64,000 bases of DNA from contig CP126200.1 in the NCBI GenBank assembly GCA_030272155.1, positions 2,976,001-3,040,000 of the forward strand, given 5' to 3'. Source of the DNA: Tetradesmus obliquus (Eukaryota > Chlorophyta > Chlorophyceae > Sphaeropleales > Scenedesmaceae). The notes under the pieces were generated by a model. That model saw nothing but the letters and a program-made list of their open reading frames with translations. It ran no database searches and had not been told where the DNA came from. Positions within the stretch are counted from its first letter, which is position 1; each line of letters opens with the position of its first letter. This document shows positions 16,154 to 64,000 of this stretch, in pieces. The position numbers and the translations under genes were made by a program.

Positions 16154-16157
16154 CTGC

Positions 16158-16158
<1 letters not shown>

Positions 16159-16206: not shown

Positions 16207-16211
<5 letters not shown>

Positions 16212-16316
16212 ACGTCAACATGAAAGTAAGCACAGCCATTGGTGTGCTGACAACAGCAGCAGCAGCAAGGGCTGGATGGTTTGACTTCTGGTTACAAACT
16301 AGTATGCAGATGCTTG

Positions 16317-17031
16317 CACTGGGTCTAGTAAAGAATCTCGCGCCATATATGCAGGGATGTAGCCAAGATCCCTATGCATCTATTGGCGTGCTCAATTGAT
16401 GCGCTGCATGCGTGTGTGCTCTGGAAAACGAGTTTACGTATGTCCCTCCTCGCAGTTAAAAACGGCGGGGATAGGCAGGTTTTGCTGCGGCTGCGCTGCT
16501 TCGAGTGACACATAAAAATATGGAATGTGTTTGCATGCAGCAGCAGGGCTGGCTGTGTGTTGTGTGTGGCGATCCAGGGCTGTGATGCGCTTGCCATGCC
16601 AAAGTGAACTCGTGATGCTTGCCCTGCTTGATTGAGCTGAGTGCCGAAAACATGTTTTCTGAGTATCGAGATTTTGGTTGTGTTGCTGTTGTGAGGCGTG
16701 CTGCAGCAGCAGCCCAGCTTGTTCACCTGATGCCTGCAAATAGCTCCTGTGGCCTTGCTGTGCTGCTGCGTGCTGATGAGAGCCCTGTGCCACGGGGGGG
16801 TTTCGATGCTATTGTGTGGTGCAAGTGTGGGTGTAAAACAGGCGTCACTGAGGGGTGTCACCAGCAGCAGCAGCAGGCAGCAGGTTGGCAGTGTCTGCAT
16901 TGGCCCTGTTCAAGGCTTCATTGTGTGCTCAAGGTAACCACGATTATACATACGAAGCTGCGTTGGATAGTATTGCGGCCGTGCGCAACAGGCTGCATGT
17001 GAACGTGTGAGATTCTTTTCTCGACCCAGTG
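16317..17031. mobile_element. Segment A, copy 1: 715-bp MITE-like element with terminal inverted repeats
   Basis: The left terminus (16317-16339) begins CACTGGGTCTAG. The right terminus (17009-17031) read on the minus strand begins CACTGGGTCGAG. They match at 21 of 23 positions. A 191-codon minus-strand frame (16900-16325) and a 127-codon plus-strand frame (16619-17002) overlap inside it, and neither resembles a known protein, so the element is treated as non-coding. No target-site duplication is visible: the left flank ends CTTG in copy 1 and GCCT in the others, and the right flank starts AAGC. Superfamily is not assigned; CACT termini occur in several cut-and-paste groups. Confidence 0.7.
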
Positions 17032-17491
17032 AAGCAGCACCACTTTTGGGGCCCCGGTTTAGGGCGCAAGTTGTCAGTGTGGCACAAGCCTGTAAATTCG
17101 TGATATAATTCATGGATGCAGTTCTTCTGTATGTGCTTAACATACGTGATGCCGCTCAGCGCGACAGCCTTAATACGCACAGCTCTGCCGTGGTGAAGTT
17201 CCAGTGCAGGCAGTTTCCCTGTGGACCTCGCGATATTCGCCTCTTCGCCTGTCTGCTTCCGCCCAATTTACAATCGAAATCGAATGAGTGGTCACGCCGG
17301 AGCATTGCCGCAGCAAGCAGCCTCCGCAATGACAACAGCGGAGCCCGGGATGTCAACACCGGTGAGCTGCTGTTGCTGCCCGGGCGCTCGTTGTGCTGCC
17401 ATAACAATCAATCATGTGAGCAGTATATTAATAAGGATTGATCAGCTGCGCGTATATCAGCAGCACCGCGGCCGTGCTCCGCAGTTTGACC

Positions 17492-17569
17492 ATGAAGCAG
17501 CAGCTGTCTCCCTGCAGCCACAGCTTGCTGCACTACAACACCAAGGAACGCCTTGACAGCCAAACTTGC
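17492..17569 (+). other. Possible first exon of the nuclease-like gene, copy 1 (tentative)
   Basis: It would encode 26 residues starting MKQQLSPCSHS and ending DSQTC, before a weak GTGCCC donor. The intron to 17626 would be only 57 bp but AT-rich and ending CTTGCAG. The frame joins the next exon in phase 0. An alternative start, ATG 17284 with donor GTGAGC at 17362, also exists but meets a stop downstream. Confidence 0.25.
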
Positions 17570-17626
17570 GTGCCCAAATAATCAAAATACACTTCTTCAT
17601 GCTACAAATGCTTCTGCTGCTTGCAG

Positions 17627-17750
17627 GGCATGCTTGAACTGCAGCCAGAAAGCCAACAACCTTGCAGCAGCAGCAGTACGAGCCAGCAGTGCGGCTCTGG
17701 CTGCCAGCACCACATGGAGACCAGGAGGAAAGGCAAAGCAGCCAACAAAG
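17627..17750 (+). other. Probable upstream exon of the nuclease-like gene, copy 1
   Basis: It is bounded by acceptor GCTTGCAG and donor AAAG|GTATGC. The frame that joins the downstream exon at 18359 (phase 1) gives a Cys/Ser-rich stretch ending in a basic run METRRKGKAANKG. That run continues into TGQVAGSTPPAAKPVGRPKG across the splice. Transposase exon 2 lies antisense within the intron this creates (17751-18358). Confidence 0.45.
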
Positions 17751-17884
17751 GTATGCTTATACTACAGCATATATTGTGCTTCACAACTAGAATAGCAGCT
17801 GCTGTGCATCTCAGCTGTAGGTGATGGCAGCCACAGCAAGGTGCCAGGGCAGCACTTGTTGCGCGCAACTTGTGTGCACTCTGT

Positions 17885-19815
17885 CTACCTGAAAGGGAAT
17901 GGTGCATACAGGCCAGCATTGTCAATGACTGCCTGGTAGGTGTATGGCAAGCTGTCCACATCAGCCTGGATTGAAGCAGGCTGTACATCATAGAACAACT
18001 GCTCCAGCTTATCCTGGCACTGCTGCGGGGTCGGCTTGCCCGGCCACAAGCTGCGGCGCCATGCCTGCAGTGCCTGGCTCAGGTATGCATGCACATGCTC
18101 GACCACCTTGTGCAGATCAGGACTGAGGGGACACAGGGCAAACCTGTGGTCTTTCGACCAGATGCCGTGCTCGTCCAGCTTGGCACGCGCGTGTGCGCTG
18201 TCGTTGTCACTGGACAACAGCCAGATGGGCTCCTCTCCTGGGTTCTGCTGCGTGTACGCCTGCCACAGCTCGTGCAGCCTCTCACGCAGATCCCGGATGC
18301 AATCCTCATACTCATCTGCTGTCATGCCCTTTGCTGGCTCACCCTTTCTGGTCTGCAGGCACAGGGCAGGTTGCAGGCAGCACACCACCAGCAGCAAAAC
18401 CCGTGGGCAGGCCAAAGGGGTGTTTCAGCAATGAAGCCCAGCAGAGGTGGAGGCCAGGTTTAAACCACATGCTGCTTGAGAGCCATGCAGCCTACAGCAG
18501 CAGCAAGCAGTGCTTTACATGCAGGTGCAAGAACAGCAAGCATGTCAGACTGCTGGCACTGCAAACCGTGTCACGCGGGGACGCTTGCTTCAAGTGTCAT
18601 GTGTGCAGCAAGAAGGGCAGCAAGTACGAGAAGCAGCTGTATGCTTTGCTGAACAGCAACGCAGCTGTCACCGCATACGCTGTGGAGGCAGTGGCTATGG
18701 GCAGGAAGATACAGCTGCAGATACCTAACAGCAAGCAGGGGCTGTGGCTGAACAGGCACAGATGGGATGCAGTGCTGCTGCAGCCGGATAGCTTGCTGAT
18801 TGAGGTGCAAGGAGAGCAGCACATAGACAAGGAGGACGGCAAGCGCAACAACAGGGGTGACACACTAGCAGACAGGCAGGCCAAGGACCAGGCATTGGCA
18901 GATGCAGCGCTGGCCGACGGTTTCAGTGTGCTGTGGCTGCACCCAGGTGCTGCAGATGATGTGCGGGGCCGCGCCAGGCGCTGGGCAGCAGCTGTGCAGG
19001 TGGCGCTGGAGCATGTTGCTGCCAAGCAGCGCCCCAAGCTGTTCAAGGCCTGAACTCACCCGGTAATCACAGCCGTCTCTGTCTGCTGCCATGCCGCTTG
19101 TGCCAGTGAAGAATTTGATCCACACAGGACCCAGCAGGTAGTTGACGCCAATGATGTACTTCAGCTTTGCCGCGCTGTTGTTGTAGCGGGGCACAGGTGT
19201 GCGCCAGTGCCAGTCCTCTTCACCAGCACTGAACCAGCCCATGTAGGATTCCTTGCTCAAGCAGATCACCTTCTCATCCACCCACACCACAGCAGCCTTG
19301 TCAGCTTGCAGCCGCGCCTTATTTTCTGCGCTGACGTCGATTCTGCTCTGCCTGTGCTGGTCATCCAGGTAGGCCCTGTCGCGCACAACCCCATACTTAA
19401 AGCGGGGGTCAAACTCCTTGAGGTTGTTGGTCAGGGTCTCCGGAGTGATGCCGGCGCCCGTCACGATGTTGTGCACCACCGCGCTCTCAGCAATCAGCTG
19501 CTCCGCTGAGGTGTACGGACCCTGCCTGCCGGCCAACCACCAGTTGCGGGCCTCGACATAGCAAGCAGTTACCTGCCGCTCTGTCAAAACCTTGTGGCGC
19601 CCGCTGCTGTGGGCGCAACCCTCAACCACGCCGTCGTCACCCAGGCGTGGGCCCCATATTTCAACGTATTCACCGGGGTTGCTGGGCAGGTCGTAGTGTG
19701 CAGCTTGCAGGCGCTTGCGGAACTCTGCTGTGGCGTCAACTAGATTACCAGAACTTGCCCTCCAGGCAAGGCCAGCAGTGTATTGGTAGACTGGTGGATA
19801 GGTCATATGCTGCAT
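17885..19815 (-). CDS. Tc1/mariner-like DDE transposase, copy 1, two exons, 407 residues
   Basis: Exon 1 is 19815-19060 (252 codons), the intron 19059-18353 (GTGAGT...CTGCAG, 707 bp), and exon 2 18352-17885, ending TAG; the join is in phase 0. An N-terminal helical DNA-binding part (about 70-165) precedes the RNase-H-like core. The first catalytic Asp is D180 in VVWVDEKVI. The second, D301, is in SSDNDSAH, with H306 matching the DNxxxH of Tc1. E337 in PLSPDLHKVVEH matches the SPDLNPIE motif, with 35 residues between D301 and E337. The intron separates D180 from the other two acids. The final codons overlap a possible donor (CAG|GTAGAC), so a small further exon is possible. A TTTTAAAT box and a CCAAT sequence lie about 110-145 bp upstream of the ATG. 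The next gene-like feature is antisense in the intron. Confidence 0.82.
18353..18358. promoter_or_regulatory. Palindromic CTGCAG used as splice acceptor on both strands, copy 1
   Basis: On the minus strand the CAG at 18355-18353 ends the transposase intron; on the plus strand the CAG at 18356-18358 ends the likely nuclease-gene intron. Both sides have pyrimidine-rich approaches (CCCTTTCTGGT on plus, CTGCCCTGTGC on minus). Frame continuity supports the minus use strongly and the plus use moderately. Confidence 0.55.
18359..19053 (+). CDS. Zinc-finger PD-(D/E)XK nuclease-like protein, main exon, copy 1
   Basis: This exon encodes 230 residues and ends TGA; an internal ATG at 18469 would give 194. 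An AT-hook-like PVGRPKG (about 18400-18420) comes first. Numbered from the 18469 Met: a Cys cluster C15, C18, C20 and C40, C43, C46 (treble-clef or ribbon-like), then SKYEKQLYALL, then the core HRWDAVLL (D100), LLIEVQGEQH (E112-V-Q114), an R/D/K-rich helix and GFSVLWL. That order matches Vsr/DUF559-type restriction-like folds, with Gln in place of the usual Lys of ExK. Such zinc-finger nucleases occur in algal genomes and large DNA viruses as possible homing or repair enzymes. It lies wholly inside the transposase intron, antisense, with stop and donor six bases apart. Nuclease activity is inference. Confidence 0.62.
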
Positions 19816-19998
19816 GTATCACGCCGAACCCTAGTTAGTACTGAACCTTGGACATGTGGCGTGTTGGTGCTCATTGTGCATGGACGGGGGCAGCACTCTG
19901 AGGCGGGCACAGTAGCGCAGCCCTGAGTTGATTGGCTACATCACATTTAAAATGCAATGCTGCGCTGCGATGCTACAGCATTAAATTGTATTTTGCCT

Positions 19999-20713
19999 CA
20001 CTGGGTCTAGTAAAGAATCTCGCGCCATATATGCAGGGATGTAGCCAAGATCCCTATGCATCTATTGGCGTGCTCAATTGATGCGCTGCATGCGTGTGTG
20101 CTCTGGAAAACGAGTTTACGTATGTCCCTCCTCGCAGTTAAAAACGGCGGGGATAGGCAGGTTTTGCTGCGGCTGCGCTGCTTCGAGTGACACATAAAAA
20201 TATGGAATGTGTTTGCATGCAGCAGCAGGGCTGGCTGTGTGTTGTGTGTGGCGATCCAGGGCTGTGATGCGCTTGCCATGCCAAAGTGAACTCGTGATGC
20301 TTGCCCTGCTTGATTGAGCTGAGTGCCGAAAACATGTTTTCTGAGTATCGAGATTTTGGTTGTGTTGCTGTTGTGAGGCGTGCTGCAGCAGCAGCCCAGC
20401 TTGTTCACCTGATGCCTGCAAATAGCTCCTGTGGCCTTGCTGTGCTGCTGCGTGCTGATGAGAGCCCTGTGCCACGGGGGGGTTTCGATGCTATTGTGTG
20501 GTGCAAGTGTGGGTGTAAAACAGGCGTCACTGAGGGGTGTCACCAGCAGCAGCAGCAGGCAGCAGGTTGGCAGTGTCTGCATTGGCCCTGTTCAAGGCTT
20601 CATTGTGTGCTCAAGGTAACCACGATTATACATACGAAGCTGCGTTGGATAGTATTGCGGCCGTGCGCAACAGGCTGCATGTGAACGTGTGAGATTCTTT
20701 TCTCGACCCAGTG
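19999..20713. mobile_element. Segment A, copy 2
   Basis: Same as copy 1 with both inverted termini; left flank is the end of segment B. Confidence 0.7.
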
Positions 20714-21566
20714 AAGCAGCACCACTTTTGGGGCCCCGGTTTAGGGCGCAAGTTGTCAGTGTGGCACAAGCCTGTAAATTCGTGATATAATTCATGGATG
20801 CAGTTCTTCTGTATGTGCTTAACATACGTGATGCCGCTCAGCGCGACAGCCTTAATACGCACAGCTCTGCCGTGGTGAAGTTCCAGTGCAGGCAGTTTCC
20901 CTGTGGACCTCGCGATATTCGCCTCTTCGCCTGTCTGCTTCCGCCCAATTTACAATCGAAATCGAATGAGTGGTCACGCCGGAGCATTGCCGCAGCAAGC
21001 AGCCTCCGCAATGACAACAGCGGAGCCCGGGATGTCAACACCGGTGAGCTGCTGTTGCTGCCCGGGCGCTCGTTGTGCTGCCATAACAATCAATCATGTG
21101 AGCAGTATATTAATAAGGATTGATCAGCTGCGCGTATATCAGCAGCACCGCGGCCGTGCTCCGCAGTTTGACCATGAAGCAGCAGCTGTCTCCCTGCAGC
21201 CACAGCTTGCTGCACTACAACACCAAGGAACGCCTTGACAGCCAAACTTGCGTGCCCAAATAATCAAAATACACTTCTTCATGCTACAAATGCTTCTGCT
21301 GCTTGCAGGGCATGCTTGAACTGCAGCCAGAAAGCCAACAACCTTGCAGCAGCAGCAGTACGAGCCAGCAGTGCGGCTCTGGCTGCCAGCACCACATGGA
21401 GACCAGGAGGAAAGGCAAAGCAGCCAACAAAGGTATGCTTATACTACAGCATATATTGTGCTTCACAACTAGAATAGCAGCTGCTGTGCATCTCAGCTGT
21501 AGGTGATGGCAGCCACAGCAAGGTGCCAGGGCAGCACTTGTTGCGCGCAACTTGTGTGCACTCTGT

Positions 21567-23497
21567 CTACCTGAAAGGGAATGGTGCATACAGGCCAGCA
21601 TTGTCAATGACTGCCTGGTAGGTGTATGGCAAGCTGTCCACATCAGCCTGGATTGAAGCAGGCTGTACATCATAGAACAACTGCTCCAGCTTATCCTGGC
21701 ACTGCTGCGGGGTCGGCTTGCCCGGCCACAAGCTGCGGCGCCATGCCTGCAGTGCCTGGCTCAGGTATGCATGCACATGCTCGACCACCTTGTGCAGATC
21801 AGGACTGAGGGGACACAGGGCAAACCTGTGGTCTTTCGACCAGATGCCGTGCTCGTCCAGCTTGGCACGCGCGTGTGCGCTGTCGTTGTCACTGGACAAC
21901 AGCCAGATGGGCTCCTCTCCTGGGTTCTGCTGCGTGTACGCCTGCCACAGCTCGTGCAGCCTCTCACGCAGATCCCGGATGCAATCCTCATACTCATCTG
22001 CTGTCATGCCCTTTGCTGGCTCACCCTTTCTGGTCTGCAGGCACAGGGCAGGTTGCAGGCAGCACACCACCAGCAGCAAAACCCGTGGGCAGGCCAAAGG
22101 GGTGTTTCAGCAATGAAGCCCAGCAGAGGTGGAGGCCAGGTTTAAACCACATGCTGCTTGAGAGCCATGCAGCCTACAGCAGCAGCAAGCAGTGCTTTAC
22201 ATGCAGGTGCAAGAACAGCAAGCATGTCAGACTGCTGGCACTGCAAACCGTGTCACGCGGGGACGCTTGCTTCAAGTGTCATGTGTGCAGCAAGAAGGGC
22301 AGCAAGTACGAGAAGCAGCTGTATGCTTTGCTGAACAGCAACGCAGCTGTCACCGCATACGCTGTGGAGGCAGTGGCTATGGGCAGGAAGATACAGCTGC
22401 AGATACCTAACAGCAAGCAGGGGCTGTGGCTGAACAGGCACAGATGGGATGCAGTGCTGCTGCAGCCGGATAGCTTGCTGATTGAGGTGCAAGGAGAGCA
22501 GCACATAGACAAGGAGGACGGCAAGCGCAACAACAGGGGTGACACACTAGCAGACAGGCAGGCCAAGGACCAGGCATTGGCAGATGCAGCGCTGGCCGAC
22601 GGTTTCAGTGTGCTGTGGCTGCACCCAGGTGCTGCAGATGATGTGCGGGGCCGCGCCAGGCGCTGGGCAGCAGCTGTGCAGGTGGCGCTGGAGCATGTTG
22701 CTGCCAAGCAGCGCCCCAAGCTGTTCAAGGCCTGAACTCACCCGGTAATCACAGCCGTCTCTGTCTGCTGCCATGCCGCTTGTGCCAGTGAAGAATTTGA
22801 TCCACACAGGACCCAGCAGGTAGTTGACGCCAATGATGTACTTCAGCTTTGCCGCGCTGTTGTTGTAGCGGGGCACAGGTGTGCGCCAGTGCCAGTCCTC
22901 TTCACCAGCACTGAACCAGCCCATGTAGGATTCCTTGCTCAAGCAGATCACCTTCTCATCCACCCACACCACAGCAGCCTTGTCAGCTTGCAGCCGCGCC
23001 TTATTTTCTGCGCTGACGTCGATTCTGCTCTGCCTGTGCTGGTCATCCAGGTAGGCCCTGTCGCGCACAACCCCATACTTAAAGCGGGGGTCAAACTCCT
23101 TGAGGTTGTTGGTCAGGGTCTCCGGAGTGATGCCGGCGCCCGTCACGATGTTGTGCACCACCGCGCTCTCAGCAATCAGCTGCTCCGCTGAGGTGTACGG
23201 ACCCTGCCTGCCGGCCAACCACCAGTTGCGGGCCTCGACATAGCAAGCAGTTACCTGCCGCTCTGTCAAAACCTTGTGGCGCCCGCTGCTGTGGGCGCAA
23301 CCCTCAACCACGCCGTCGTCACCCAGGCGTGGGCCCCATATTTCAACGTATTCACCGGGGTTGCTGGGCAGGTCGTAGTGTGCAGCTTGCAGGCGCTTGC
23401 GGAACTCTGCTGTGGCGTCAACTAGATTACCAGAACTTGCCCTCCAGGCAAGGCCAGCAGTGTATTGGTAGACTGGTGGATAGGTCATATGCTGCAT
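21567..23497 (-). CDS. DDE transposase, copy 2
   Basis: Exons 23497-22742 and 22034-21567; translation identical to copy 1. Confidence 0.8.
22041..22735 (+). CDS. Nuclease-like protein, copy 2
   Basis: Main exon; translation identical to copy 1. Confidence 0.6.
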
Positions 23498-23680
23498 GTA
23501 TCACGCCGAACCCTAGTTAGTACTGAACCTTGGACATGTGGCGTGTTGGTGCTCATTGTGCATGGACGGGGGCAGCACTCTGAGGCGGGCACAGTAGCGC
23601 AGCCCTGAGTTGATTGGCTACATCACATTTAAAATGCAATGCTGCGCTGCGATGCTACAGCATTAAATTGTATTTTGCCT

Positions 23681-24395
23681 CACTGGGTCTAGTAAAGAAT
23701 CTCGCGCCATATATGCAGGGATGTAGCCAAGATCCCTATGCATCTATTGGCGTGCTCAATTGATGCGCTGCATGCGTGTGTGCTCTGGAAAACGAGTTTA
23801 CGTATGTCCCTCCTCGCAGTTAAAAACGGCGGGGATAGGCAGGTTTTGCTGCGGCTGCGCTGCTTCGAGTGACACATAAAAATATGGAATGTGTTTGCAT
23901 GCAGCAGCAGGGCTGGCTGTGTGTTGTGTGTGGCGATCCAGGGCTGTGATGCGCTTGCCATGCCAAAGTGAACTCGTGATGCTTGCCCTGCTTGATTGAG
24001 CTGAGTGCCGAAAACATGTTTTCTGAGTATCGAGATTTTGGTTGTGTTGCTGTTGTGAGGCGTGCTGCAGCAGCAGCCCAGCTTGTTCACCTGATGCCTG
24101 CAAATAGCTCCTGTGGCCTTGCTGTGCTGCTGCGTGCTGATGAGAGCCCTGTGCCACGGGGGGGTTTCGATGCTATTGTGTGGTGCAAGTGTGGGTGTAA
24201 AACAGGCGTCACTGAGGGGTGTCACCAGCAGCAGCAGCAGGCAGCAGGTTGGCAGTGTCTGCATTGGCCCTGTTCAAGGCTTCATTGTGTGCTCAAGGTA
24301 ACCACGATTATACATACGAAGCTGCGTTGGATAGTATTGCGGCCGTGCGCAACAGGCTGCATGTGAACGTGTGAGATTCTTTTCTCGACCCAGTG
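23681..24395. mobile_element. Segment A, copy 3
   Basis: Identical in structure to copy 1. Confidence 0.7.
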
Positions 24396-25248
24396 AAGCA
24401 GCACCACTTTTGGGGCCCCGGTTTAGGGCGCAAGTTGTCAGTGTGGCACAAGCCTGTAAATTCGTGATATAATTCATGGATGCAGTTCTTCTGTATGTGC
24501 TTAACATACGTGATGCCGCTCAGCGCGACAGCCTTAATACGCACAGCTCTGCCGTGGTGAAGTTCCAGTGCAGGCAGTTTCCCTGTGGACCTCGCGATAT
24601 TCGCCTCTTCGCCTGTCTGCTTCCGCCCAATTTACAATCGAAATCGAATGAGTGGTCACGCCGGAGCATTGCCGCAGCAAGCAGCCTCCGCAATGACAAC
24701 AGCGGAGCCCGGGATGTCAACACCGGTGAGCTGCTGTTGCTGCCCGGGCGCTCGTTGTGCTGCCATAACAATCAATCATGTGAGCAGTATATTAATAAGG
24801 ATTGATCAGCTGCGCGTATATCAGCAGCACCGCGGCCGTGCTCCGCAGTTTGACCATGAAGCAGCAGCTGTCTCCCTGCAGCCACAGCTTGCTGCACTAC
24901 AACACCAAGGAACGCCTTGACAGCCAAACTTGCGTGCCCAAATAATCAAAATACACTTCTTCATGCTACAAATGCTTCTGCTGCTTGCAGGGCATGCTTG
25001 AACTGCAGCCAGAAAGCCAACAACCTTGCAGCAGCAGCAGTACGAGCCAGCAGTGCGGCTCTGGCTGCCAGCACCACATGGAGACCAGGAGGAAAGGCAA
25101 AGCAGCCAACAAAGGTATGCTTATACTACAGCATATATTGTGCTTCACAACTAGAATAGCAGCTGCTGTGCATCTCAGCTGTAGGTGATGGCAGCCACAG
25201 CAAGGTGCCAGGGCAGCACTTGTTGCGCGCAACTTGTGTGCACTCTGT

Positions 25249-27179
25249 CTACCTGAAAGGGAATGGTGCATACAGGCCAGCATTGTCAATGACTGCCTGG
25301 TAGGTGTATGGCAAGCTGTCCACATCAGCCTGGATTGAAGCAGGCTGTACATCATAGAACAACTGCTCCAGCTTATCCTGGCACTGCTGCGGGGTCGGCT
25401 TGCCCGGCCACAAGCTGCGGCGCCATGCCTGCAGTGCCTGGCTCAGGTATGCATGCACATGCTCGACCACCTTGTGCAGATCAGGACTGAGGGGACACAG
25501 GGCAAACCTGTGGTCTTTCGACCAGATGCCGTGCTCGTCCAGCTTGGCACGCGCGTGTGCGCTGTCGTTGTCACTGGACAACAGCCAGATGGGCTCCTCT
25601 CCTGGGTTCTGCTGCGTGTACGCCTGCCACAGCTCGTGCAGCCTCTCACGCAGATCCCGGATGCAATCCTCATACTCATCTGCTGTCATGCCCTTTGCTG
25701 GCTCACCCTTTCTGGTCTGCAGGCACAGGGCAGGTTGCAGGCAGCACACCACCAGCAGCAAAACCCGTGGGCAGGCCAAAGGGGTGTTTCAGCAATGAAG
25801 CCCAGCAGAGGTGGAGGCCAGGTTTAAACCACATGCTGCTTGAGAGCCATGCAGCCTACAGCAGCAGCAAGCAGTGCTTTACATGCAGGTGCAAGAACAG
25901 CAAGCATGTCAGACTGCTGGCACTGCAAACCGTGTCACGCGGGGACGCTTGCTTCAAGTGTCATGTGTGCAGCAAGAAGGGCAGCAAGTACGAGAAGCAG
26001 CTGTATGCTTTGCTGAACAGCAACGCAGCTGTCACCGCATACGCTGTGGAGGCAGTGGCTATGGGCAGGAAGATACAGCTGCAGATACCTAACAGCAAGC
26101 AGGGGCTGTGGCTGAACAGGCACAGATGGGATGCAGTGCTGCTGCAGCCGGATAGCTTGCTGATTGAGGTGCAAGGAGAGCAGCACATAGACAAGGAGGA
26201 CGGCAAGCGCAACAACAGGGGTGACACACTAGCAGACAGGCAGGCCAAGGACCAGGCATTGGCAGATGCAGCGCTGGCCGACGGTTTCAGTGTGCTGTGG
26301 CTGCACCCAGGTGCTGCAGATGATGTGCGGGGCCGCGCCAGGCGCTGGGCAGCAGCTGTGCAGGTGGCGCTGGAGCATGTTGCTGCCAAGCAGCGCCCCA
26401 AGCTGTTCAAGGCCTGAACTCACCCGGTAATCACAGCCGTCTCTGTCTGCTGCCATGCCGCTTGTGCCAGTGAAGAATTTGATCCACACAGGACCCAGCA
26501 GGTAGTTGACGCCAATGATGTACTTCAGCTTTGCCGCGCTGTTGTTGTAGCGGGGCACAGGTGTGCGCCAGTGCCAGTCCTCTTCACCAGCACTGAACCA
26601 GCCCATGTAGGATTCCTTGCTCAAGCAGATCACCTTCTCATCCACCCACACCACAGCAGCCTTGTCAGCTTGCAGCCGCGCCTTATTTTCTGCGCTGACG
26701 TCGATTCTGCTCTGCCTGTGCTGGTCATCCAGGTAGGCCCTGTCGCGCACAACCCCATACTTAAAGCGGGGGTCAAACTCCTTGAGGTTGTTGGTCAGGG
26801 TCTCCGGAGTGATGCCGGCGCCCGTCACGATGTTGTGCACCACCGCGCTCTCAGCAATCAGCTGCTCCGCTGAGGTGTACGGACCCTGCCTGCCGGCCAA
26901 CCACCAGTTGCGGGCCTCGACATAGCAAGCAGTTACCTGCCGCTCTGTCAAAACCTTGTGGCGCCCGCTGCTGTGGGCGCAACCCTCAACCACGCCGTCG
27001 TCACCCAGGCGTGGGCCCCATATTTCAACGTATTCACCGGGGTTGCTGGGCAGGTCGTAGTGTGCAGCTTGCAGGCGCTTGCGGAACTCTGCTGTGGCGT
27101 CAACTAGATTACCAGAACTTGCCCTCCAGGCAAGGCCAGCAGTGTATTGGTAGACTGGTGGATAGGTCATATGCTGCAT
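25249..27179 (-). CDS. DDE transposase, copy 3
   Basis: Exons 27179-26424 and 25716-25249; translation identical to copy 1. Confidence 0.8.
25723..26417 (+). CDS. Nuclease-like protein, copy 3
   Basis: Main exon; translation identical to copy 1. Confidence 0.6.
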
Positions 27180-27362
27180 GTATCACGCCGAACCCTAGTT
27201 AGTACTGAACCTTGGACATGTGGCGTGTTGGTGCTCATTGTGCATGGACGGGGGCAGCACTCTGAGGCGGGCACAGTAGCGCAGCCCTGAGTTGATTGGC
27301 TACATCACATTTAAAATGCAATGCTGCGCTGCGATGCTACAGCATTAAATTGTATTTTGCCT

Positions 27363-28077
27363 CACTGGGTCTAGTAAAGAATCTCGCGCCATATATGCAG
27401 GGATGTAGCCAAGATCCCTATGCATCTATTGGCGTGCTCAATTGATGCGCTGCATGCGTGTGTGCTCTGGAAAACGAGTTTACGTATGTCCCTCCTCGCA
27501 GTTAAAAACGGCGGGGATAGGCAGGTTTTGCTGCGGCTGCGCTGCTTCGAGTGACACATAAAAATATGGAATGTGTTTGCATGCAGCAGCAGGGCTGGCT
27601 GTGTGTTGTGTGTGGCGATCCAGGGCTGTGATGCGCTTGCCATGCCAAAGTGAACTCGTGATGCTTGCCCTGCTTGATTGAGCTGAGTGCCGAAAACATG
27701 TTTTCTGAGTATCGAGATTTTGGTTGTGTTGCTGTTGTGAGGCGTGCTGCAGCAGCAGCCCAGCTTGTTCACCTGATGCCTGCAAATAGCTCCTGTGGCC
27801 TTGCTGTGCTGCTGCGTGCTGATGAGAGCCCTGTGCCACGGGGGGGTTTCGATGCTATTGTGTGGTGCAAGTGTGGGTGTAAAACAGGCGTCACTGAGGG
27901 GTGTCACCAGCAGCAGCAGCAGGCAGCAGGTTGGCAGTGTCTGCATTGGCCCTGTTCAAGGCTTCATTGTGTGCTCAAGGTAACCACGATTATACATACG
28001 AAGCTGCGTTGGATAGTATTGCGGCCGTGCGCAACAGGCTGCATGTGAACGTGTGAGATTCTTTTCTCGACCCAGTG
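27363..28077. mobile_element. Segment A, copy 4
   Basis: Identical in structure to copy 1. Confidence 0.7.
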
Positions 28078-28930
28078 AAGCAGCACCACTTTTGGGGCCC
28101 CGGTTTAGGGCGCAAGTTGTCAGTGTGGCACAAGCCTGTAAATTCGTGATATAATTCATGGATGCAGTTCTTCTGTATGTGCTTAACATACGTGATGCCG
28201 CTCAGCGCGACAGCCTTAATACGCACAGCTCTGCCGTGGTGAAGTTCCAGTGCAGGCAGTTTCCCTGTGGACCTCGCGATATTCGCCTCTTCGCCTGTCT
28301 GCTTCCGCCCAATTTACAATCGAAATCGAATGAGTGGTCACGCCGGAGCATTGCCGCAGCAAGCAGCCTCCGCAATGACAACAGCGGAGCCCGGGATGTC
28401 AACACCGGTGAGCTGCTGTTGCTGCCCGGGCGCTCGTTGTGCTGCCATAACAATCAATCATGTGAGCAGTATATTAATAAGGATTGATCAGCTGCGCGTA
28501 TATCAGCAGCACCGCGGCCGTGCTCCGCAGTTTGACCATGAAGCAGCAGCTGTCTCCCTGCAGCCACAGCTTGCTGCACTACAACACCAAGGAACGCCTT
28601 GACAGCCAAACTTGCGTGCCCAAATAATCAAAATACACTTCTTCATGCTACAAATGCTTCTGCTGCTTGCAGGGCATGCTTGAACTGCAGCCAGAAAGCC
28701 AACAACCTTGCAGCAGCAGCAGTACGAGCCAGCAGTGCGGCTCTGGCTGCCAGCACCACATGGAGACCAGGAGGAAAGGCAAAGCAGCCAACAAAGGTAT
28801 GCTTATACTACAGCATATATTGTGCTTCACAACTAGAATAGCAGCTGCTGTGCATCTCAGCTGTAGGTGATGGCAGCCACAGCAAGGTGCCAGGGCAGCA
28901 CTTGTTGCGCGCAACTTGTGTGCACTCTGT

Positions 28931-30861
28931 CTACCTGAAAGGGAATGGTGCATACAGGCCAGCATTGTCAATGACTGCCTGGTAGGTGTATGGCAAGCTG
29001 TCCACATCAGCCTGGATTGAAGCAGGCTGTACATCATAGAACAACTGCTCCAGCTTATCCTGGCACTGCTGCGGGGTCGGCTTGCCCGGCCACAAGCTGC
29101 GGCGCCATGCCTGCAGTGCCTGGCTCAGGTATGCATGCACATGCTCGACCACCTTGTGCAGATCAGGACTGAGGGGACACAGGGCAAACCTGTGGTCTTT
29201 CGACCAGATGCCGTGCTCGTCCAGCTTGGCACGCGCGTGTGCGCTGTCGTTGTCACTGGACAACAGCCAGATGGGCTCCTCTCCTGGGTTCTGCTGCGTG
29301 TACGCCTGCCACAGCTCGTGCAGCCTCTCACGCAGATCCCGGATGCAATCCTCATACTCATCTGCTGTCATGCCCTTTGCTGGCTCACCCTTTCTGGTCT
29401 GCAGGCACAGGGCAGGTTGCAGGCAGCACACCACCAGCAGCAAAACCCGTGGGCAGGCCAAAGGGGTGTTTCAGCAATGAAGCCCAGCAGAGGTGGAGGC
29501 CAGGTTTAAACCACATGCTGCTTGAGAGCCATGCAGCCTACAGCAGCAGCAAGCAGTGCTTTACATGCAGGTGCAAGAACAGCAAGCATGTCAGACTGCT
29601 GGCACTGCAAACCGTGTCACGCGGGGACGCTTGCTTCAAGTGTCATGTGTGCAGCAAGAAGGGCAGCAAGTACGAGAAGCAGCTGTATGCTTTGCTGAAC
29701 AGCAACGCAGCTGTCACCGCATACGCTGTGGAGGCAGTGGCTATGGGCAGGAAGATACAGCTGCAGATACCTAACAGCAAGCAGGGGCTGTGGCTGAACA
29801 GGCACAGATGGGATGCAGTGCTGCTGCAGCCGGATAGCTTGCTGATTGAGGTGCAAGGAGAGCAGCACATAGACAAGGAGGACGGCAAGCGCAACAACAG
29901 GGGTGACACACTAGCAGACAGGCAGGCCAAGGACCAGGCATTGGCAGATGCAGCGCTGGCCGACGGTTTCAGTGTGCTGTGGCTGCACCCAGGTGCTGCA
30001 GATGATGTGCGGGGCCGCGCCAGGCGCTGGGCAGCAGCTGTGCAGGTGGCGCTGGAGCATGTTGCTGCCAAGCAGCGCCCCAAGCTGTTCAAGGCCTGAA
30101 CTCACCCGGTAATCACAGCCGTCTCTGTCTGCTGCCATGCCGCTTGTGCCAGTGAAGAATTTGATCCACACAGGACCCAGCAGGTAGTTGACGCCAATGA
30201 TGTACTTCAGCTTTGCCGCGCTGTTGTTGTAGCGGGGCACAGGTGTGCGCCAGTGCCAGTCCTCTTCACCAGCACTGAACCAGCCCATGTAGGATTCCTT
30301 GCTCAAGCAGATCACCTTCTCATCCACCCACACCACAGCAGCCTTGTCAGCTTGCAGCCGCGCCTTATTTTCTGCGCTGACGTCGATTCTGCTCTGCCTG
30401 TGCTGGTCATCCAGGTAGGCCCTGTCGCGCACAACCCCATACTTAAAGCGGGGGTCAAACTCCTTGAGGTTGTTGGTCAGGGTCTCCGGAGTGATGCCGG
30501 CGCCCGTCACGATGTTGTGCACCACCGCGCTCTCAGCAATCAGCTGCTCCGCTGAGGTGTACGGACCCTGCCTGCCGGCCAACCACCAGTTGCGGGCCTC
30601 GACATAGCAAGCAGTTACCTGCCGCTCTGTCAAAACCTTGTGGCGCCCGCTGCTGTGGGCGCAACCCTCAACCACGCCGTCGTCACCCAGGCGTGGGCCC
30701 CATATTTCAACGTATTCACCGGGGTTGCTGGGCAGGTCGTAGTGTGCAGCTTGCAGGCGCTTGCGGAACTCTGCTGTGGCGTCAACTAGATTACCAGAAC
30801 TTGCCCTCCAGGCAAGGCCAGCAGTGTATTGGTAGACTGGTGGATAGGTCATATGCTGCAT
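28931..30861 (-). CDS. DDE transposase, copy 4
   Basis: Exons 30861-30106 and 29398-28931; translation identical to copy 1. Confidence 0.8.
29405..30099 (+). CDS. Nuclease-like protein, copy 4
   Basis: Main exon; translation identical to copy 1. Confidence 0.6.
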
Positions 30862-31044
30862 GTATCACGCCGAACCCTAGTTAGTACTGAACCTTGGACA
30901 TGTGGCGTGTTGGTGCTCATTGTGCATGGACGGGGGCAGCACTCTGAGGCGGGCACAGTAGCGCAGCCCTGAGTTGATTGGCTACATCACATTTAAAATG
31001 CAATGCTGCGCTGCGATGCTACAGCATTAAATTGTATTTTGCCT

Positions 31045-31759
31045 CACTGGGTCTAGTAAAGAATCTCGCGCCATATATGCAGGGATGTAGCCAAGATCCC
31101 TATGCATCTATTGGCGTGCTCAATTGATGCGCTGCATGCGTGTGTGCTCTGGAAAACGAGTTTACGTATGTCCCTCCTCGCAGTTAAAAACGGCGGGGAT
31201 AGGCAGGTTTTGCTGCGGCTGCGCTGCTTCGAGTGACACATAAAAATATGGAATGTGTTTGCATGCAGCAGCAGGGCTGGCTGTGTGTTGTGTGTGGCGA
31301 TCCAGGGCTGTGATGCGCTTGCCATGCCAAAGTGAACTCGTGATGCTTGCCCTGCTTGATTGAGCTGAGTGCCGAAAACATGTTTTCTGAGTATCGAGAT
31401 TTTGGTTGTGTTGCTGTTGTGAGGCGTGCTGCAGCAGCAGCCCAGCTTGTTCACCTGATGCCTGCAAATAGCTCCTGTGGCCTTGCTGTGCTGCTGCGTG
31501 CTGATGAGAGCCCTGTGCCACGGGGGGGTTTCGATGCTATTGTGTGGTGCAAGTGTGGGTGTAAAACAGGCGTCACTGAGGGGTGTCACCAGCAGCAGCA
31601 GCAGGCAGCAGGTTGGCAGTGTCTGCATTGGCCCTGTTCAAGGCTTCATTGTGTGCTCAAGGTAACCACGATTATACATACGAAGCTGCGTTGGATAGTA
31701 TTGCGGCCGTGCGCAACAGGCTGCATGTGAACGTGTGAGATTCTTTTCTCGACCCAGTG
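31045..31759. mobile_element. Segment A, copy 5
   Basis: Identical in structure to copy 1. Confidence 0.7.
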
Positions 31760-32612
31760 AAGCAGCACCACTTTTGGGGCCCCGGTTTAGGGCGCAAGTT
31801 GTCAGTGTGGCACAAGCCTGTAAATTCGTGATATAATTCATGGATGCAGTTCTTCTGTATGTGCTTAACATACGTGATGCCGCTCAGCGCGACAGCCTTA
31901 ATACGCACAGCTCTGCCGTGGTGAAGTTCCAGTGCAGGCAGTTTCCCTGTGGACCTCGCGATATTCGCCTCTTCGCCTGTCTGCTTCCGCCCAATTTACA
32001 ATCGAAATCGAATGAGTGGTCACGCCGGAGCATTGCCGCAGCAAGCAGCCTCCGCAATGACAACAGCGGAGCCCGGGATGTCAACACCGGTGAGCTGCTG
32101 TTGCTGCCCGGGCGCTCGTTGTGCTGCCATAACAATCAATCATGTGAGCAGTATATTAATAAGGATTGATCAGCTGCGCGTATATCAGCAGCACCGCGGC
32201 CGTGCTCCGCAGTTTGACCATGAAGCAGCAGCTGTCTCCCTGCAGCCACAGCTTGCTGCACTACAACACCAAGGAACGCCTTGACAGCCAAACTTGCGTG
32301 CCCAAATAATCAAAATACACTTCTTCATGCTACAAATGCTTCTGCTGCTTGCAGGGCATGCTTGAACTGCAGCCAGAAAGCCAACAACCTTGCAGCAGCA
32401 GCAGTACGAGCCAGCAGTGCGGCTCTGGCTGCCAGCACCACATGGAGACCAGGAGGAAAGGCAAAGCAGCCAACAAAGGTATGCTTATACTACAGCATAT
32501 ATTGTGCTTCACAACTAGAATAGCAGCTGCTGTGCATCTCAGCTGTAGGTGATGGCAGCCACAGCAAGGTGCCAGGGCAGCACTTGTTGCGCGCAACTTG
32601 TGTGCACTCTGT

Positions 32613-34543
32613 CTACCTGAAAGGGAATGGTGCATACAGGCCAGCATTGTCAATGACTGCCTGGTAGGTGTATGGCAAGCTGTCCACATCAGCCTGGATT
32701 GAAGCAGGCTGTACATCATAGAACAACTGCTCCAGCTTATCCTGGCACTGCTGCGGGGTCGGCTTGCCCGGCCACAAGCTGCGGCGCCATGCCTGCAGTG
32801 CCTGGCTCAGGTATGCATGCACATGCTCGACCACCTTGTGCAGATCAGGACTGAGGGGACACAGGGCAAACCTGTGGTCTTTCGACCAGATGCCGTGCTC
32901 GTCCAGCTTGGCACGCGCGTGTGCGCTGTCGTTGTCACTGGACAACAGCCAGATGGGCTCCTCTCCTGGGTTCTGCTGCGTGTACGCCTGCCACAGCTCG
33001 TGCAGCCTCTCACGCAGATCCCGGATGCAATCCTCATACTCATCTGCTGTCATGCCCTTTGCTGGCTCACCCTTTCTGGTCTGCAGGCACAGGGCAGGTT
33101 GCAGGCAGCACACCACCAGCAGCAAAACCCGTGGGCAGGCCAAAGGGGTGTTTCAGCAATGAAGCCCAGCAGAGGTGGAGGCCAGGTTTAAACCACATGC
33201 TGCTTGAGAGCCATGCAGCCTACAGCAGCAGCAAGCAGTGCTTTACATGCAGGTGCAAGAACAGCAAGCATGTCAGACTGCTGGCACTGCAAACCGTGTC
33301 ACGCGGGGACGCTTGCTTCAAGTGTCATGTGTGCAGCAAGAAGGGCAGCAAGTACGAGAAGCAGCTGTATGCTTTGCTGAACAGCAACGCAGCTGTCACC
33401 GCATACGCTGTGGAGGCAGTGGCTATGGGCAGGAAGATACAGCTGCAGATACCTAACAGCAAGCAGGGGCTGTGGCTGAACAGGCACAGATGGGATGCAG
33501 TGCTGCTGCAGCCGGATAGCTTGCTGATTGAGGTGCAAGGAGAGCAGCACATAGACAAGGAGGACGGCAAGCGCAACAACAGGGGTGACACACTAGCAGA
33601 CAGGCAGGCCAAGGACCAGGCATTGGCAGATGCAGCGCTGGCCGACGGTTTCAGTGTGCTGTGGCTGCACCCAGGTGCTGCAGATGATGTGCGGGGCCGC
33701 GCCAGGCGCTGGGCAGCAGCTGTGCAGGTGGCGCTGGAGCATGTTGCTGCCAAGCAGCGCCCCAAGCTGTTCAAGGCCTGAACTCACCCGGTAATCACAG
33801 CCGTCTCTGTCTGCTGCCATGCCGCTTGTGCCAGTGAAGAATTTGATCCACACAGGACCCAGCAGGTAGTTGACGCCAATGATGTACTTCAGCTTTGCCG
33901 CGCTGTTGTTGTAGCGGGGCACAGGTGTGCGCCAGTGCCAGTCCTCTTCACCAGCACTGAACCAGCCCATGTAGGATTCCTTGCTCAAGCAGATCACCTT
34001 CTCATCCACCCACACCACAGCAGCCTTGTCAGCTTGCAGCCGCGCCTTATTTTCTGCGCTGACGTCGATTCTGCTCTGCCTGTGCTGGTCATCCAGGTAG
34101 GCCCTGTCGCGCACAACCCCATACTTAAAGCGGGGGTCAAACTCCTTGAGGTTGTTGGTCAGGGTCTCCGGAGTGATGCCGGCGCCCGTCACGATGTTGT
34201 GCACCACCGCGCTCTCAGCAATCAGCTGCTCCGCTGAGGTGTACGGACCCTGCCTGCCGGCCAACCACCAGTTGCGGGCCTCGACATAGCAAGCAGTTAC
34301 CTGCCGCTCTGTCAAAACCTTGTGGCGCCCGCTGCTGTGGGCGCAACCCTCAACCACGCCGTCGTCACCCAGGCGTGGGCCCCATATTTCAACGTATTCA
34401 CCGGGGTTGCTGGGCAGGTCGTAGTGTGCAGCTTGCAGGCGCTTGCGGAACTCTGCTGTGGCGTCAACTAGATTACCAGAACTTGCCCTCCAGGCAAGGC
34501 CAGCAGTGTATTGGTAGACTGGTGGATAGGTCATATGCTGCAT
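32613..34543 (-). CDS. DDE transposase, copy 5
   Basis: Exons 34543-33788 and 33080-32613; translation identical to copy 1. Confidence 0.8.
33087..33781 (+). CDS. Nuclease-like protein, copy 5
   Basis: Main exon; translation identical to copy 1. Confidence 0.6.
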
Positions 34544-34726
34544 GTATCACGCCGAACCCTAGTTAGTACTGAACCTTGGACATGTGGCGTGTTGGTGCTC
34601 ATTGTGCATGGACGGGGGCAGCACTCTGAGGCGGGCACAGTAGCGCAGCCCTGAGTTGATTGGCTACATCACATTTAAAATGCAATGCTGCGCTGCGATG
34701 CTACAGCATTAAATTGTATTTTGCCT

Positions 34727-35441
34727 CACTGGGTCTAGTAAAGAATCTCGCGCCATATATGCAGGGATGTAGCCAAGATCCCTATGCATCTATTGGCGTG
34801 CTCAATTGATGCGCTGCATGCGTGTGTGCTCTGGAAAACGAGTTTACGTATGTCCCTCCTCGCAGTTAAAAACGGCGGGGATAGGCAGGTTTTGCTGCGG
34901 CTGCGCTGCTTCGAGTGACACATAAAAATATGGAATGTGTTTGCATGCAGCAGCAGGGCTGGCTGTGTGTTGTGTGTGGCGATCCAGGGCTGTGATGCGC
35001 TTGCCATGCCAAAGTGAACTCGTGATGCTTGCCCTGCTTGATTGAGCTGAGTGCCGAAAACATGTTTTCTGAGTATCGAGATTTTGGTTGTGTTGCTGTT
35101 GTGAGGCGTGCTGCAGCAGCAGCCCAGCTTGTTCACCTGATGCCTGCAAATAGCTCCTGTGGCCTTGCTGTGCTGCTGCGTGCTGATGAGAGCCCTGTGC
35201 CACGGGGGGGTTTCGATGCTATTGTGTGGTGCAAGTGTGGGTGTAAAACAGGCGTCACTGAGGGGTGTCACCAGCAGCAGCAGCAGGCAGCAGGTTGGCA
35301 GTGTCTGCATTGGCCCTGTTCAAGGCTTCATTGTGTGCTCAAGGTAACCACGATTATACATACGAAGCTGCGTTGGATAGTATTGCGGCCGTGCGCAACA
35401 GGCTGCATGTGAACGTGTGAGATTCTTTTCTCGACCCAGTG
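34727..35441. mobile_element. Segment A, copy 6
   Basis: Identical in structure to copy 1. Confidence 0.7.
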
Positions 35442-36294
35442 AAGCAGCACCACTTTTGGGGCCCCGGTTTAGGGCGCAAGTTGTCAGTGTGGCACAAGCC
35501 TGTAAATTCGTGATATAATTCATGGATGCAGTTCTTCTGTATGTGCTTAACATACGTGATGCCGCTCAGCGCGACAGCCTTAATACGCACAGCTCTGCCG
35601 TGGTGAAGTTCCAGTGCAGGCAGTTTCCCTGTGGACCTCGCGATATTCGCCTCTTCGCCTGTCTGCTTCCGCCCAATTTACAATCGAAATCGAATGAGTG
35701 GTCACGCCGGAGCATTGCCGCAGCAAGCAGCCTCCGCAATGACAACAGCGGAGCCCGGGATGTCAACACCGGTGAGCTGCTGTTGCTGCCCGGGCGCTCG
35801 TTGTGCTGCCATAACAATCAATCATGTGAGCAGTATATTAATAAGGATTGATCAGCTGCGCGTATATCAGCAGCACCGCGGCCGTGCTCCGCAGTTTGAC
35901 CATGAAGCAGCAGCTGTCTCCCTGCAGCCACAGCTTGCTGCACTACAACACCAAGGAACGCCTTGACAGCCAAACTTGCGTGCCCAAATAATCAAAATAC
36001 ACTTCTTCATGCTACAAATGCTTCTGCTGCTTGCAGGGCATGCTTGAACTGCAGCCAGAAAGCCAACAACCTTGCAGCAGCAGCAGTACGAGCCAGCAGT
36101 GCGGCTCTGGCTGCCAGCACCACATGGAGACCAGGAGGAAAGGCAAAGCAGCCAACAAAGGTATGCTTATACTACAGCATATATTGTGCTTCACAACTAG
36201 AATAGCAGCTGCTGTGCATCTCAGCTGTAGGTGATGGCAGCCACAGCAAGGTGCCAGGGCAGCACTTGTTGCGCGCAACTTGTGTGCACTCTGT

Positions 36295-38225
36295 CTACCT
36301 GAAAGGGAATGGTGCATACAGGCCAGCATTGTCAATGACTGCCTGGTAGGTGTATGGCAAGCTGTCCACATCAGCCTGGATTGAAGCAGGCTGTACATCA
36401 TAGAACAACTGCTCCAGCTTATCCTGGCACTGCTGCGGGGTCGGCTTGCCCGGCCACAAGCTGCGGCGCCATGCCTGCAGTGCCTGGCTCAGGTATGCAT
36501 GCACATGCTCGACCACCTTGTGCAGATCAGGACTGAGGGGACACAGGGCAAACCTGTGGTCTTTCGACCAGATGCCGTGCTCGTCCAGCTTGGCACGCGC
36601 GTGTGCGCTGTCGTTGTCACTGGACAACAGCCAGATGGGCTCCTCTCCTGGGTTCTGCTGCGTGTACGCCTGCCACAGCTCGTGCAGCCTCTCACGCAGA
36701 TCCCGGATGCAATCCTCATACTCATCTGCTGTCATGCCCTTTGCTGGCTCACCCTTTCTGGTCTGCAGGCACAGGGCAGGTTGCAGGCAGCACACCACCA
36801 GCAGCAAAACCCGTGGGCAGGCCAAAGGGGTGTTTCAGCAATGAAGCCCAGCAGAGGTGGAGGCCAGGTTTAAACCACATGCTGCTTGAGAGCCATGCAG
36901 CCTACAGCAGCAGCAAGCAGTGCTTTACATGCAGGTGCAAGAACAGCAAGCATGTCAGACTGCTGGCACTGCAAACCGTGTCACGCGGGGACGCTTGCTT
37001 CAAGTGTCATGTGTGCAGCAAGAAGGGCAGCAAGTACGAGAAGCAGCTGTATGCTTTGCTGAACAGCAACGCAGCTGTCACCGCATACGCTGTGGAGGCA
37101 GTGGCTATGGGCAGGAAGATACAGCTGCAGATACCTAACAGCAAGCAGGGGCTGTGGCTGAACAGGCACAGATGGGATGCAGTGCTGCTGCAGCCGGATA
37201 GCTTGCTGATTGAGGTGCAAGGAGAGCAGCACATAGACAAGGAGGACGGCAAGCGCAACAACAGGGGTGACACACTAGCAGACAGGCAGGCCAAGGACCA
37301 GGCATTGGCAGATGCAGCGCTGGCCGACGGTTTCAGTGTGCTGTGGCTGCACCCAGGTGCTGCAGATGATGTGCGGGGCCGCGCCAGGCGCTGGGCAGCA
37401 GCTGTGCAGGTGGCGCTGGAGCATGTTGCTGCCAAGCAGCGCCCCAAGCTGTTCAAGGCCTGAACTCACCCGGTAATCACAGCCGTCTCTGTCTGCTGCC
37501 ATGCCGCTTGTGCCAGTGAAGAATTTGATCCACACAGGACCCAGCAGGTAGTTGACGCCAATGATGTACTTCAGCTTTGCCGCGCTGTTGTTGTAGCGGG
37601 GCACAGGTGTGCGCCAGTGCCAGTCCTCTTCACCAGCACTGAACCAGCCCATGTAGGATTCCTTGCTCAAGCAGATCACCTTCTCATCCACCCACACCAC
37701 AGCAGCCTTGTCAGCTTGCAGCCGCGCCTTATTTTCTGCGCTGACGTCGATTCTGCTCTGCCTGTGCTGGTCATCCAGGTAGGCCCTGTCGCGCACAACC
37801 CCATACTTAAAGCGGGGGTCAAACTCCTTGAGGTTGTTGGTCAGGGTCTCCGGAGTGATGCCGGCGCCCGTCACGATGTTGTGCACCACCGCGCTCTCAG
37901 CAATCAGCTGCTCCGCTGAGGTGTACGGACCCTGCCTGCCGGCCAACCACCAGTTGCGGGCCTCGACATAGCAAGCAGTTACCTGCCGCTCTGTCAAAAC
38001 CTTGTGGCGCCCGCTGCTGTGGGCGCAACCCTCAACCACGCCGTCGTCACCCAGGCGTGGGCCCCATATTTCAACGTATTCACCGGGGTTGCTGGGCAGG
38101 TCGTAGTGTGCAGCTTGCAGGCGCTTGCGGAACTCTGCTGTGGCGTCAACTAGATTACCAGAACTTGCCCTCCAGGCAAGGCCAGCAGTGTATTGGTAGA
38201 CTGGTGGATAGGTCATATGCTGCAT
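36295..38225 (-). CDS. DDE transposase, copy 6
   Basis: Exons 38225-37470 and 36762-36295; translation identical to copy 1. Confidence 0.8.
36769..37463 (+). CDS. Nuclease-like protein, copy 6
   Basis: Main exon; translation identical to copy 1. Confidence 0.6.
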
Positions 38226-38408
38226 GTATCACGCCGAACCCTAGTTAGTACTGAACCTTGGACATGTGGCGTGTTGGTGCTCATTGTGCATGGACGGGGG
38301 CAGCACTCTGAGGCGGGCACAGTAGCGCAGCCCTGAGTTGATTGGCTACATCACATTTAAAATGCAATGCTGCGCTGCGATGCTACAGCATTAAATTGTA
38401 TTTTGCCT

Positions 38409-39123
38409 CACTGGGTCTAGTAAAGAATCTCGCGCCATATATGCAGGGATGTAGCCAAGATCCCTATGCATCTATTGGCGTGCTCAATTGATGCGCTGCA
38501 TGCGTGTGTGCTCTGGAAAACGAGTTTACGTATGTCCCTCCTCGCAGTTAAAAACGGCGGGGATAGGCAGGTTTTGCTGCGGCTGCGCTGCTTCGAGTGA
38601 CACATAAAAATATGGAATGTGTTTGCATGCAGCAGCAGGGCTGGCTGTGTGTTGTGTGTGGCGATCCAGGGCTGTGATGCGCTTGCCATGCCAAAGTGAA
38701 CTCGTGATGCTTGCCCTGCTTGATTGAGCTGAGTGCCGAAAACATGTTTTCTGAGTATCGAGATTTTGGTTGTGTTGCTGTTGTGAGGCGTGCTGCAGCA
38801 GCAGCCCAGCTTGTTCACCTGATGCCTGCAAATAGCTCCTGTGGCCTTGCTGTGCTGCTGCGTGCTGATGAGAGCCCTGTGCCACGGGGGGGTTTCGATG
38901 CTATTGTGTGGTGCAAGTGTGGGTGTAAAACAGGCGTCACTGAGGGGTGTCACCAGCAGCAGCAGCAGGCAGCAGGTTGGCAGTGTCTGCATTGGCCCTG
39001 TTCAAGGCTTCATTGTGTGCTCAAGGTAACCACGATTATACATACGAAGCTGCGTTGGATAGTATTGCGGCCGTGCGCAACAGGCTGCATGTGAACGTGT
39101 GAGATTCTTTTCTCGACCCAGTG
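38409..39123. mobile_element. Segment A, copy 7
   Basis: Identical in structure to copy 1. Confidence 0.7.
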
Positions 39124-63999: not shown

Positions 64000-64000
64000 G

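What the first reader, a model, noticed from the sequence alone, without database searches (positions are those of the whole stretch)
17627..19815. Two antiparallel genes interlocked exon-in-intron inside a transposon unit
The transposase intron (18353-19059, 707 bp) is filled by an antisense exon (18359-19053, 695 bp) of a zinc-finger PD-(D/E)XK nuclease-like gene, with six bases left at each end. In turn transposase exon 2 (17885-18352) appears to sit inside the intron of the nuclease gene (17751-18358). Each gene's exon is the other's intron. Transposase splicing is well supported by phase-0 joining and the restored DDE core; the nuclease's upstream exon is less certain. A nuclease nested in a transposase intron, on the other strand, could be a homing-type passenger, a partner in mobilisation, or a way to keep both genes together. 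I know of no described element with this layout.
Basis: partly seen in the sequence, partly recalled or inferred. Interest (0 to 1): 0.92.

Follow-up and report, generated by a model that had tools for sequence, protein, structure and literature searches.

The report
Interlocked genes in an algal transposon
A green-alga jumping gene carries its cut-and-paste enzyme and a second DNA-cutting enzyme on opposite strands, each gene's exon lying inside the other's intron, and four diverged families of the element keep this zipper-like layout.

Summary
In each 3,682-bp unit a minus-strand DDE transposase (407 aa) and a plus-strand nuclease (271 aa) interlock: the 707-nt transposase intron holds the nuclease's main exon, and the 608-nt nuclease intron holds transposase exon 2. 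One CTGCAG palindrome is acceptor for both strands. Four families in this genome (nucleases 66, 39 and 36% identical to the window's) keep the intron positions and phases. Coding parts show dN<dS. A deposited Tetradesmus protein uses the predicted transposase junction; a deposited Scenedesmus protein fits the nuclease's first exon. No RNA was seen.

A 715-bp 'cap' with CACTGGG inverted ends flanks the gene-bearing body on both sides. Insertions with both ends intact have 3-bp duplications (7 of 7 examined, families 1-2), form cap-(body-cap)n arrays, and lose internal caps leaving C(A/T)G (12 of 12 clean junctions). This is the composite plan published for animal KolobokP, reached here with a Tc1/mariner-like transposase and a Vsr-fold nuclease. 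Likely mechanism: the transposase moves caps and whole elements; nuclease cuts provoke sister-chromatid exchange that builds arrays. The nuclease's role is inferred.

The parts
16314..16316 (.). TTG, left copy of the 3-bp target site duplication; right copy is outside the window at C10:3051944-3051946
16317..17031 (+). first cap, 715 bp, long terminal direct repeat with its own inverted ends (CACTGGGTC...GACCCAGTG); repeated at 19999-20713 and every 3,682 bp
16317..16339 (+). left inverted end of the cap, 23 nt, 91% complementary to 17009-17031
   Evidence: found there on the next unit, 3,682 bp on
17009..17031 (-). right inverted end of the cap
   Evidence: next unit
17032..19998 (.). body, 2,967 bp, holds both genes
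17630..17750 (+). nuclease exon 1 (121 nt)
   Evidence: P0008
17751..18358 (+). nuclease intron, 608 nt, GTATGC...CTGCAG, phase 1, encloses transposase exon 2
18359..19053 (+). nuclease exon 2 with C/H region and PD-(D/E)XK domain, stop TGA at 19051-19053
19060..19815 (-). transposase exon 1 (D180), start ATG at 19815
18353..19059 (-). transposase intron, 707 nt, GTGAGT...CTGCAG, phase 0, encloses nuclease exon 2
17885..18352 (-). transposase exon 2 (D301, E337), stop included
18353..18358 (.). CTGCAG palindrome serving as acceptor for both introns, one per strand
   Evidence: kept in family 2
16317..64000 (+). tandem array, 12 complete 3,682-bp units and part of a thirteenth in the window; the whole array is C10:2992317-3051943 with 16 bodies and 17 caps

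Best explanation
A composite-like DNA transposon of scenedesmacean green algae. Shown by sequence: long direct-repeat caps with their own inverted ends flank a body that encodes a DDE transposase and a PD-(D/E)XK-fold nuclease; the two genes are interlocked on opposite strands and each needs splicing. Inferred, well supported: the transposase recognises cap ends and moves a solo cap or a cap-body-cap unit with 3-bp duplications, and excision of an internal cap leaves C(A/T)G. Inferred, less sure: the nuclease cuts a site in the element or at its junctions, and repair from a misaligned sister copy adds units, giving long uniform arrays and replacing caps lost by excision. Interlocking packs both genes into 2.2 kb and leaves no complementarity between the mature mRNAs, although the precursors are antisense, so each gene's output depends on splicing and on which strand is transcribed.
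For: Interlock kept in four families with dN<dS. Caps at both ends of the C10, C17, C8 and C15 elements and of a C16 element. 3-bp duplications in 7 of 7 insertions of families 1-2 with both ends intact: arrays C10 TTG, C17 CAG, C3 ATC; monomer C8 TAG; solo caps C4 GAG, C15 CCT, C10:5212084 CAC. C(A/T)G at 12 of 12 clean cap-less junctions. Transposase D-D-E order and spacing and collinear Sleeping Beauty match, E 0.036. Nuclease fold closest to Vsr and a homing endonuclease. The same architecture, with multimers and cap loss, is published for KolobokP, whose authors propose nuclease-induced unequal crossover (PMC9587614).
Against: No RNA, no enzyme assay, no cut site known for the nuclease. 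The transposase-to-Tc1/mariner link is weak by sequence (E 0.036; lost with a second alignment; no Pfam family) and Tc1/mariner elements duplicate TA (recalled), not 3 variable bases. Unequal crossover can make arrays without any nuclease. The 100%-identical C10 units also fit simple recent amplification. Families 3 and 4 fit 4-bp duplications better. C2 and C6 arrays begin inside a body.
Confidence: 0.6

Rival explanations
1. The nuclease is a TnsA-like partner: it cuts the 5' strands at cap ends while the DDE transposase cuts and joins the 3' strands, so that transposition needs both.
Confidence: 0.15
2. The nuclease is a homing-type parasite that entered the transposase gene, became its intron by splicing, and is kept by its own drive without helping transposition.
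Against: No nuclease match outside the element and no transposase relative without the intron were found (0 of 23 read straight across), so no sign of independent movement. The transposase exon also lies in the nuclease's intron, which simple insertion does not explain.
Confidence: 0.15
3. Only one strand is really expressed; the antisense frame is a by-product, or the arrays are inert satellite DNA or an assembly artefact.
For: No RNA evidence; C10 units are 100% identical; families 3 and 4 carry broken transposase frames.
Against: Both genes show dN<dS and both have relatives in metagenomes. For 7 of the 23 transposase relatives the longest contig is 3,660-3,716 bp, about one unit, as expected of collapsed arrays (my inference). 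Arrays differ in cap-less units and in bases.
Confidence: 0.05

Closest known systems
KolobokP (Kojima and Bao 2022, PMC9587614; abstract, background, results and most of the discussion read)
   Same: Internal region between long terminal direct repeats (about 450 or 660 bp there, 690-720 bp here) that have their own short inverted ends; solo repeats, multimers sharing repeats, loss of internal repeats; DDD/E transposase plus a homing-type nuclease on the complementary strand.
   Different: KolobokP is reported from animals only, with a Kolobok transposase, a His-Me finger nuclease placed downstream, 5'-RR termini and 3-5-bp duplications. Here: green alga, Tc1/mariner-like transposase, PD-(D/E)XK-fold nuclease, CACTG termini, and genes interlocked exon-in-intron.
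IS630/Tc1/mariner transposases (Sleeping Beauty, Tc3)
   Same: D-D-E order with D301 and E337 36 positions apart; collinear profile match to Sleeping Beauty, E 0.036; scar C(A/T)G of the form Sleeping Beauty leaves (recalled).
   Different: 3-bp variable duplication, not TA; termini CACTG; direct-repeat caps; second gene; weak sequence support.
CACTA/EnSpm elements
   Same: CACTG termini and 3-bp duplications (class features recalled).
   Different: No CACTA-type transposase match in Pfam; transposase resembles another group.
Vsr / I-Bth0305I (EDxHD) nucleases, and TnsA
   Different: No significant sequence match; motif here is D...E-x-Q...H; extra C/H region; eukaryotic, spliced, antisense inside a transposase intron.

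Membership tests
KolobokP | internal region flanked by long terminal direct repeats with own inverted ends, solo repeats and multimers | tested here: met
KolobokP | His-Me finger (I-PpoI-like) nuclease | tested here: not met
   fold matches are PD-(D/E)XK nucleases
KolobokP | Kolobok DDD/E transposase with zinc finger between second D and E | tested here: not met
   the only Cys between D301 and E337 in family 1 is absent from family 2
KolobokP | termini 5'-RR and YY-3' | tested here: not met
   termini are CACTG...CAGTG
IS630/Tc1/mariner | RNase H-like DDE/D core with short second-to-third spacing | tested here: inconclusive
   order and spacing fit; Sleeping Beauty E 0.036 collinear but not found with alignment A5; no Pfam match to such a family
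IS630/Tc1/mariner | bipartite helix-turn-helix N-terminus | tested here: inconclusive
IS630/Tc1/mariner | TA target duplication | tested here: not met
   TTG, CAG, ATC, TAG, GAG, CCT, CAC
CACTA/EnSpm | CACTR termini and 3-bp duplication | tested here: met
   families 1-2
CACTA/EnSpm | CACTA-type transposase | tested here: inconclusive
   no Pfam match of any transposase family
PD-(D/E)XK superfamily | core fold with conserved acidic motif | tested here: met
Homing endonuclease | site-specific cleavage that copies its own gene | not testable with these tools
   needs a cleavage assay

The most novel reading that the evidence does not exclude
Green algae have independently evolved the KolobokP way of life: a DDE transposase that moves long direct-repeat caps, plus a Vsr-like nuclease that multiplies the element in place into arrays of up to 61 units. 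The two genes are interlocked exon-in-intron so that neither can be lost, or expressed without splicing, alone; the interlock is an addiction-like device kept across four diverged families.
Probability: 0.4. Interest if true: 0.86.

Novelty: new variant of a known kind. Interest (0 to 1): 0.76.

Why it matters
If right, the composite plan of direct-repeat caps plus transposase plus homing-type nuclease arose at least twice, in animals with one transposase and nuclease type and in green algae with another, which makes nuclease-driven array growth a testable general strategy. The interlocked genes are a clean natural case of two coding genes sharing one locus with no exon overlap, and a tractable system for asking how opposite-strand transcription and splicing are balanced. 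The arrays (up to about 221 kb) are also a large and apparently recent source of genome change in this group of algae.

Tried and rejected
Chance antisense frame: rejected by four-family conservation, dN<dS and metagenome relatives. Oddity of a single array: rejected. Cap as an unrelated small element that hit one unit before amplification: rejected, because family 2 has a homologous cap (about 71% over 660 bp) at the same place, and families 3 and 4 have 690-720-bp caps. KolobokP membership: rejected on nuclease fold, missing zinc finger and termini.

Literature: searches listed no paper on an interlocked transposase/nuclease pair or on this element. Titles and abstract starts were what I saw, apart from PMC9587614 (sections named above) and passages of PMC7955037. 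The library holds open-licence papers only and Repbase was not searched, so absence in print is not proven.

Full report
What was checked. The window lies at C10:2976001-3040000 of a 104.66-Mb, 17-contig genome. From 16317 to its end it is a perfect tandem array with period 3,682. I read the quoted region on both strands and rebuilt both genes. The transposase is 407 aa; its intron has GTGAGT...CTGCAG borders and phase 0. The nuclease is 271 aa; its intron has GTATGC...CTGCAG borders and phase 1. The palindrome CTGCAG at 18353-18358 is the acceptor of both introns, one on each strand. The coding exons of the two genes do not overlap by a single base.

Is it more than chance? The same genome holds four families. 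Family 1 is on C10 (16 bodies), C2 (18 full), C6 (4 full) and C16. Family 2 is on C17 (61 nuclease matches), C3 (16) and C8 (1). Family 3 is on C15 (2) and family 4 on C16 (2). Nuclease identity to the window is 66, 39 and 36% for families 2, 3 and 4; transposase identity is 50% for family 2 and 31% for the readable part of family 4. Family 2 has the same 707-nt transposase intron and the same 121-nt nuclease first exon. The transposase junction falls at one aligned site in all four. The nuclease intron has a phase-1 solution in all four, and a TR-containing motif precedes the donor in families 1, 3 and 4 and in P0008, though not in family 2. In families 3 and 4 the two acceptors are no longer one palindrome but lie some 15 nt apart. 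Between families 1 and 2 both genes show dN below dS, weakly so for the short nuclease exon 1; coding DNA is 62-73% identical, nuclease exon 1 54%, and non-coding parts 43-52%. All 100 exon-1 transposase matches listed neighbour a nuclease match, by my reading of the tables. In one search one further transposase match, C6:2326210, lies in the truncated left end of an array where the nuclease part is missing. Two more partial family 1-like copies on C16 are broken.

Independent gene models. P0022, deposited as Tetradesmus obliquus OEZ85_001778, is a 399-aa relative of the family 4 transposase and joins ...GAPYK to TKKGKK..., the junction predicted here. P0008, from Scenedesmus sp. NREL 46B-D3, begins with a Ser-rich 39-residue stretch ending LTRNKHNSLVK and then G, matching nuclease exon 1 in length and end. 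That genome was annotated with ab initio, homology and transcriptome input (PMC7955037, passages), so neither model is proof of splicing. P0008 also lacks the catalytic stretch of its relatives, which may be an annotation error. Of 23 transposase relatives, 12 run past the donor into the intron, 1 is spliced, 9 start in the intron or in exon 2, and 1 ends before the junction; none reads straight from exon 1 to exon 2.

The mobile unit. Each period is a 715-bp cap plus a 2,967-bp body. The cap starts CACTGGGTC and ends GACCCAGTG, with 23-nt inverted ends at 91%. The C10 array starts and ends with a cap and is flanked by TTG. The C17 and C3 arrays and the single C8 element, all family 2, are flanked by CAG, ATC and TAG. 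Three solo family 1 caps are flanked by GAG, CCT and CAC; beside the last, part of the cap and its flank are tandemly repeated. That is 7 of 7 insertions examined with both ends intact. Family 3 and family 4 copies fit 4-bp duplications, CTTT and AGAG, better. Arrays on C2 and C6 begin inside a body, so no duplication can be tested. The cap of family 2 is about 71% identical to that of family 1 over 660 bp and sits at the same place; family 3 caps are 699 bp and family 4 caps 720 and 690 bp. The cap is therefore part of the element.

Cap loss. Where two bodies meet without a cap, 3 nt stand in its place: CTG or CAG in 5 C2 and 2 C6 junctions, CTG in 4 C17 junctions and CAG in 1 C15 junction, which is 12 of 12. 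A thirteenth on C16, with an altered body end, also reads CTG. C(A/T)G results if each end keeps a 2-nt CA overhang and the two overhangs overlap at an A:A mismatch; this is my inference. Sleeping Beauty leaves a scar of the same form (recalled).

How it works, most likely. The transposase acts on cap ends, which explains solo caps, 3-bp duplications and cap loss. Long arrays keep one duplication at their outer ends, so they most likely grew in place after one insertion. The KolobokP authors propose nuclease-induced unequal exchange for the same pattern (PMC9587614), and I adopt that as the most likely role of this nuclease, at roughly even odds against all other roles together. Interlocking may simply be compact. 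It also means that the two mature mRNAs cannot pair although their precursors can, and that loss of either gene's exon damages an intron of the other.

What is new. The plan of direct-repeat caps, transposase and nuclease is known from KolobokP in animals. New here are the host group, the transposase and nuclease types, and the exon-in-intron interlock conserved over four families. Nine literature searches listed no description of it, in a library of open-licence papers only.

Noticed in passing
L030 (C10:5211951-5217400): Beside a complete cap flanked by CAC, a 1,355-bp unit made of the cap's right flank plus cap bases 128-715 is repeated in tandem three times, so tandem growth happens at a solo cap too, without the genes.
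   Followed up: partly
C17:2095005-2316560: A single family 2 array of 61 units, about 221.6 kb, flanked by one CAG duplication; 4 of its 60 spacings lack the cap.
   Followed up: partly
L022-L023 (C16:1398922-1403808): A cap-less, inverted and rearranged pair of older family 1 bodies, a degraded form of the element.
   Followed up: no
window 1294-16208: Many CAG/GCA triplet-repeat tracts in the flank outside the array.
   Followed up: no
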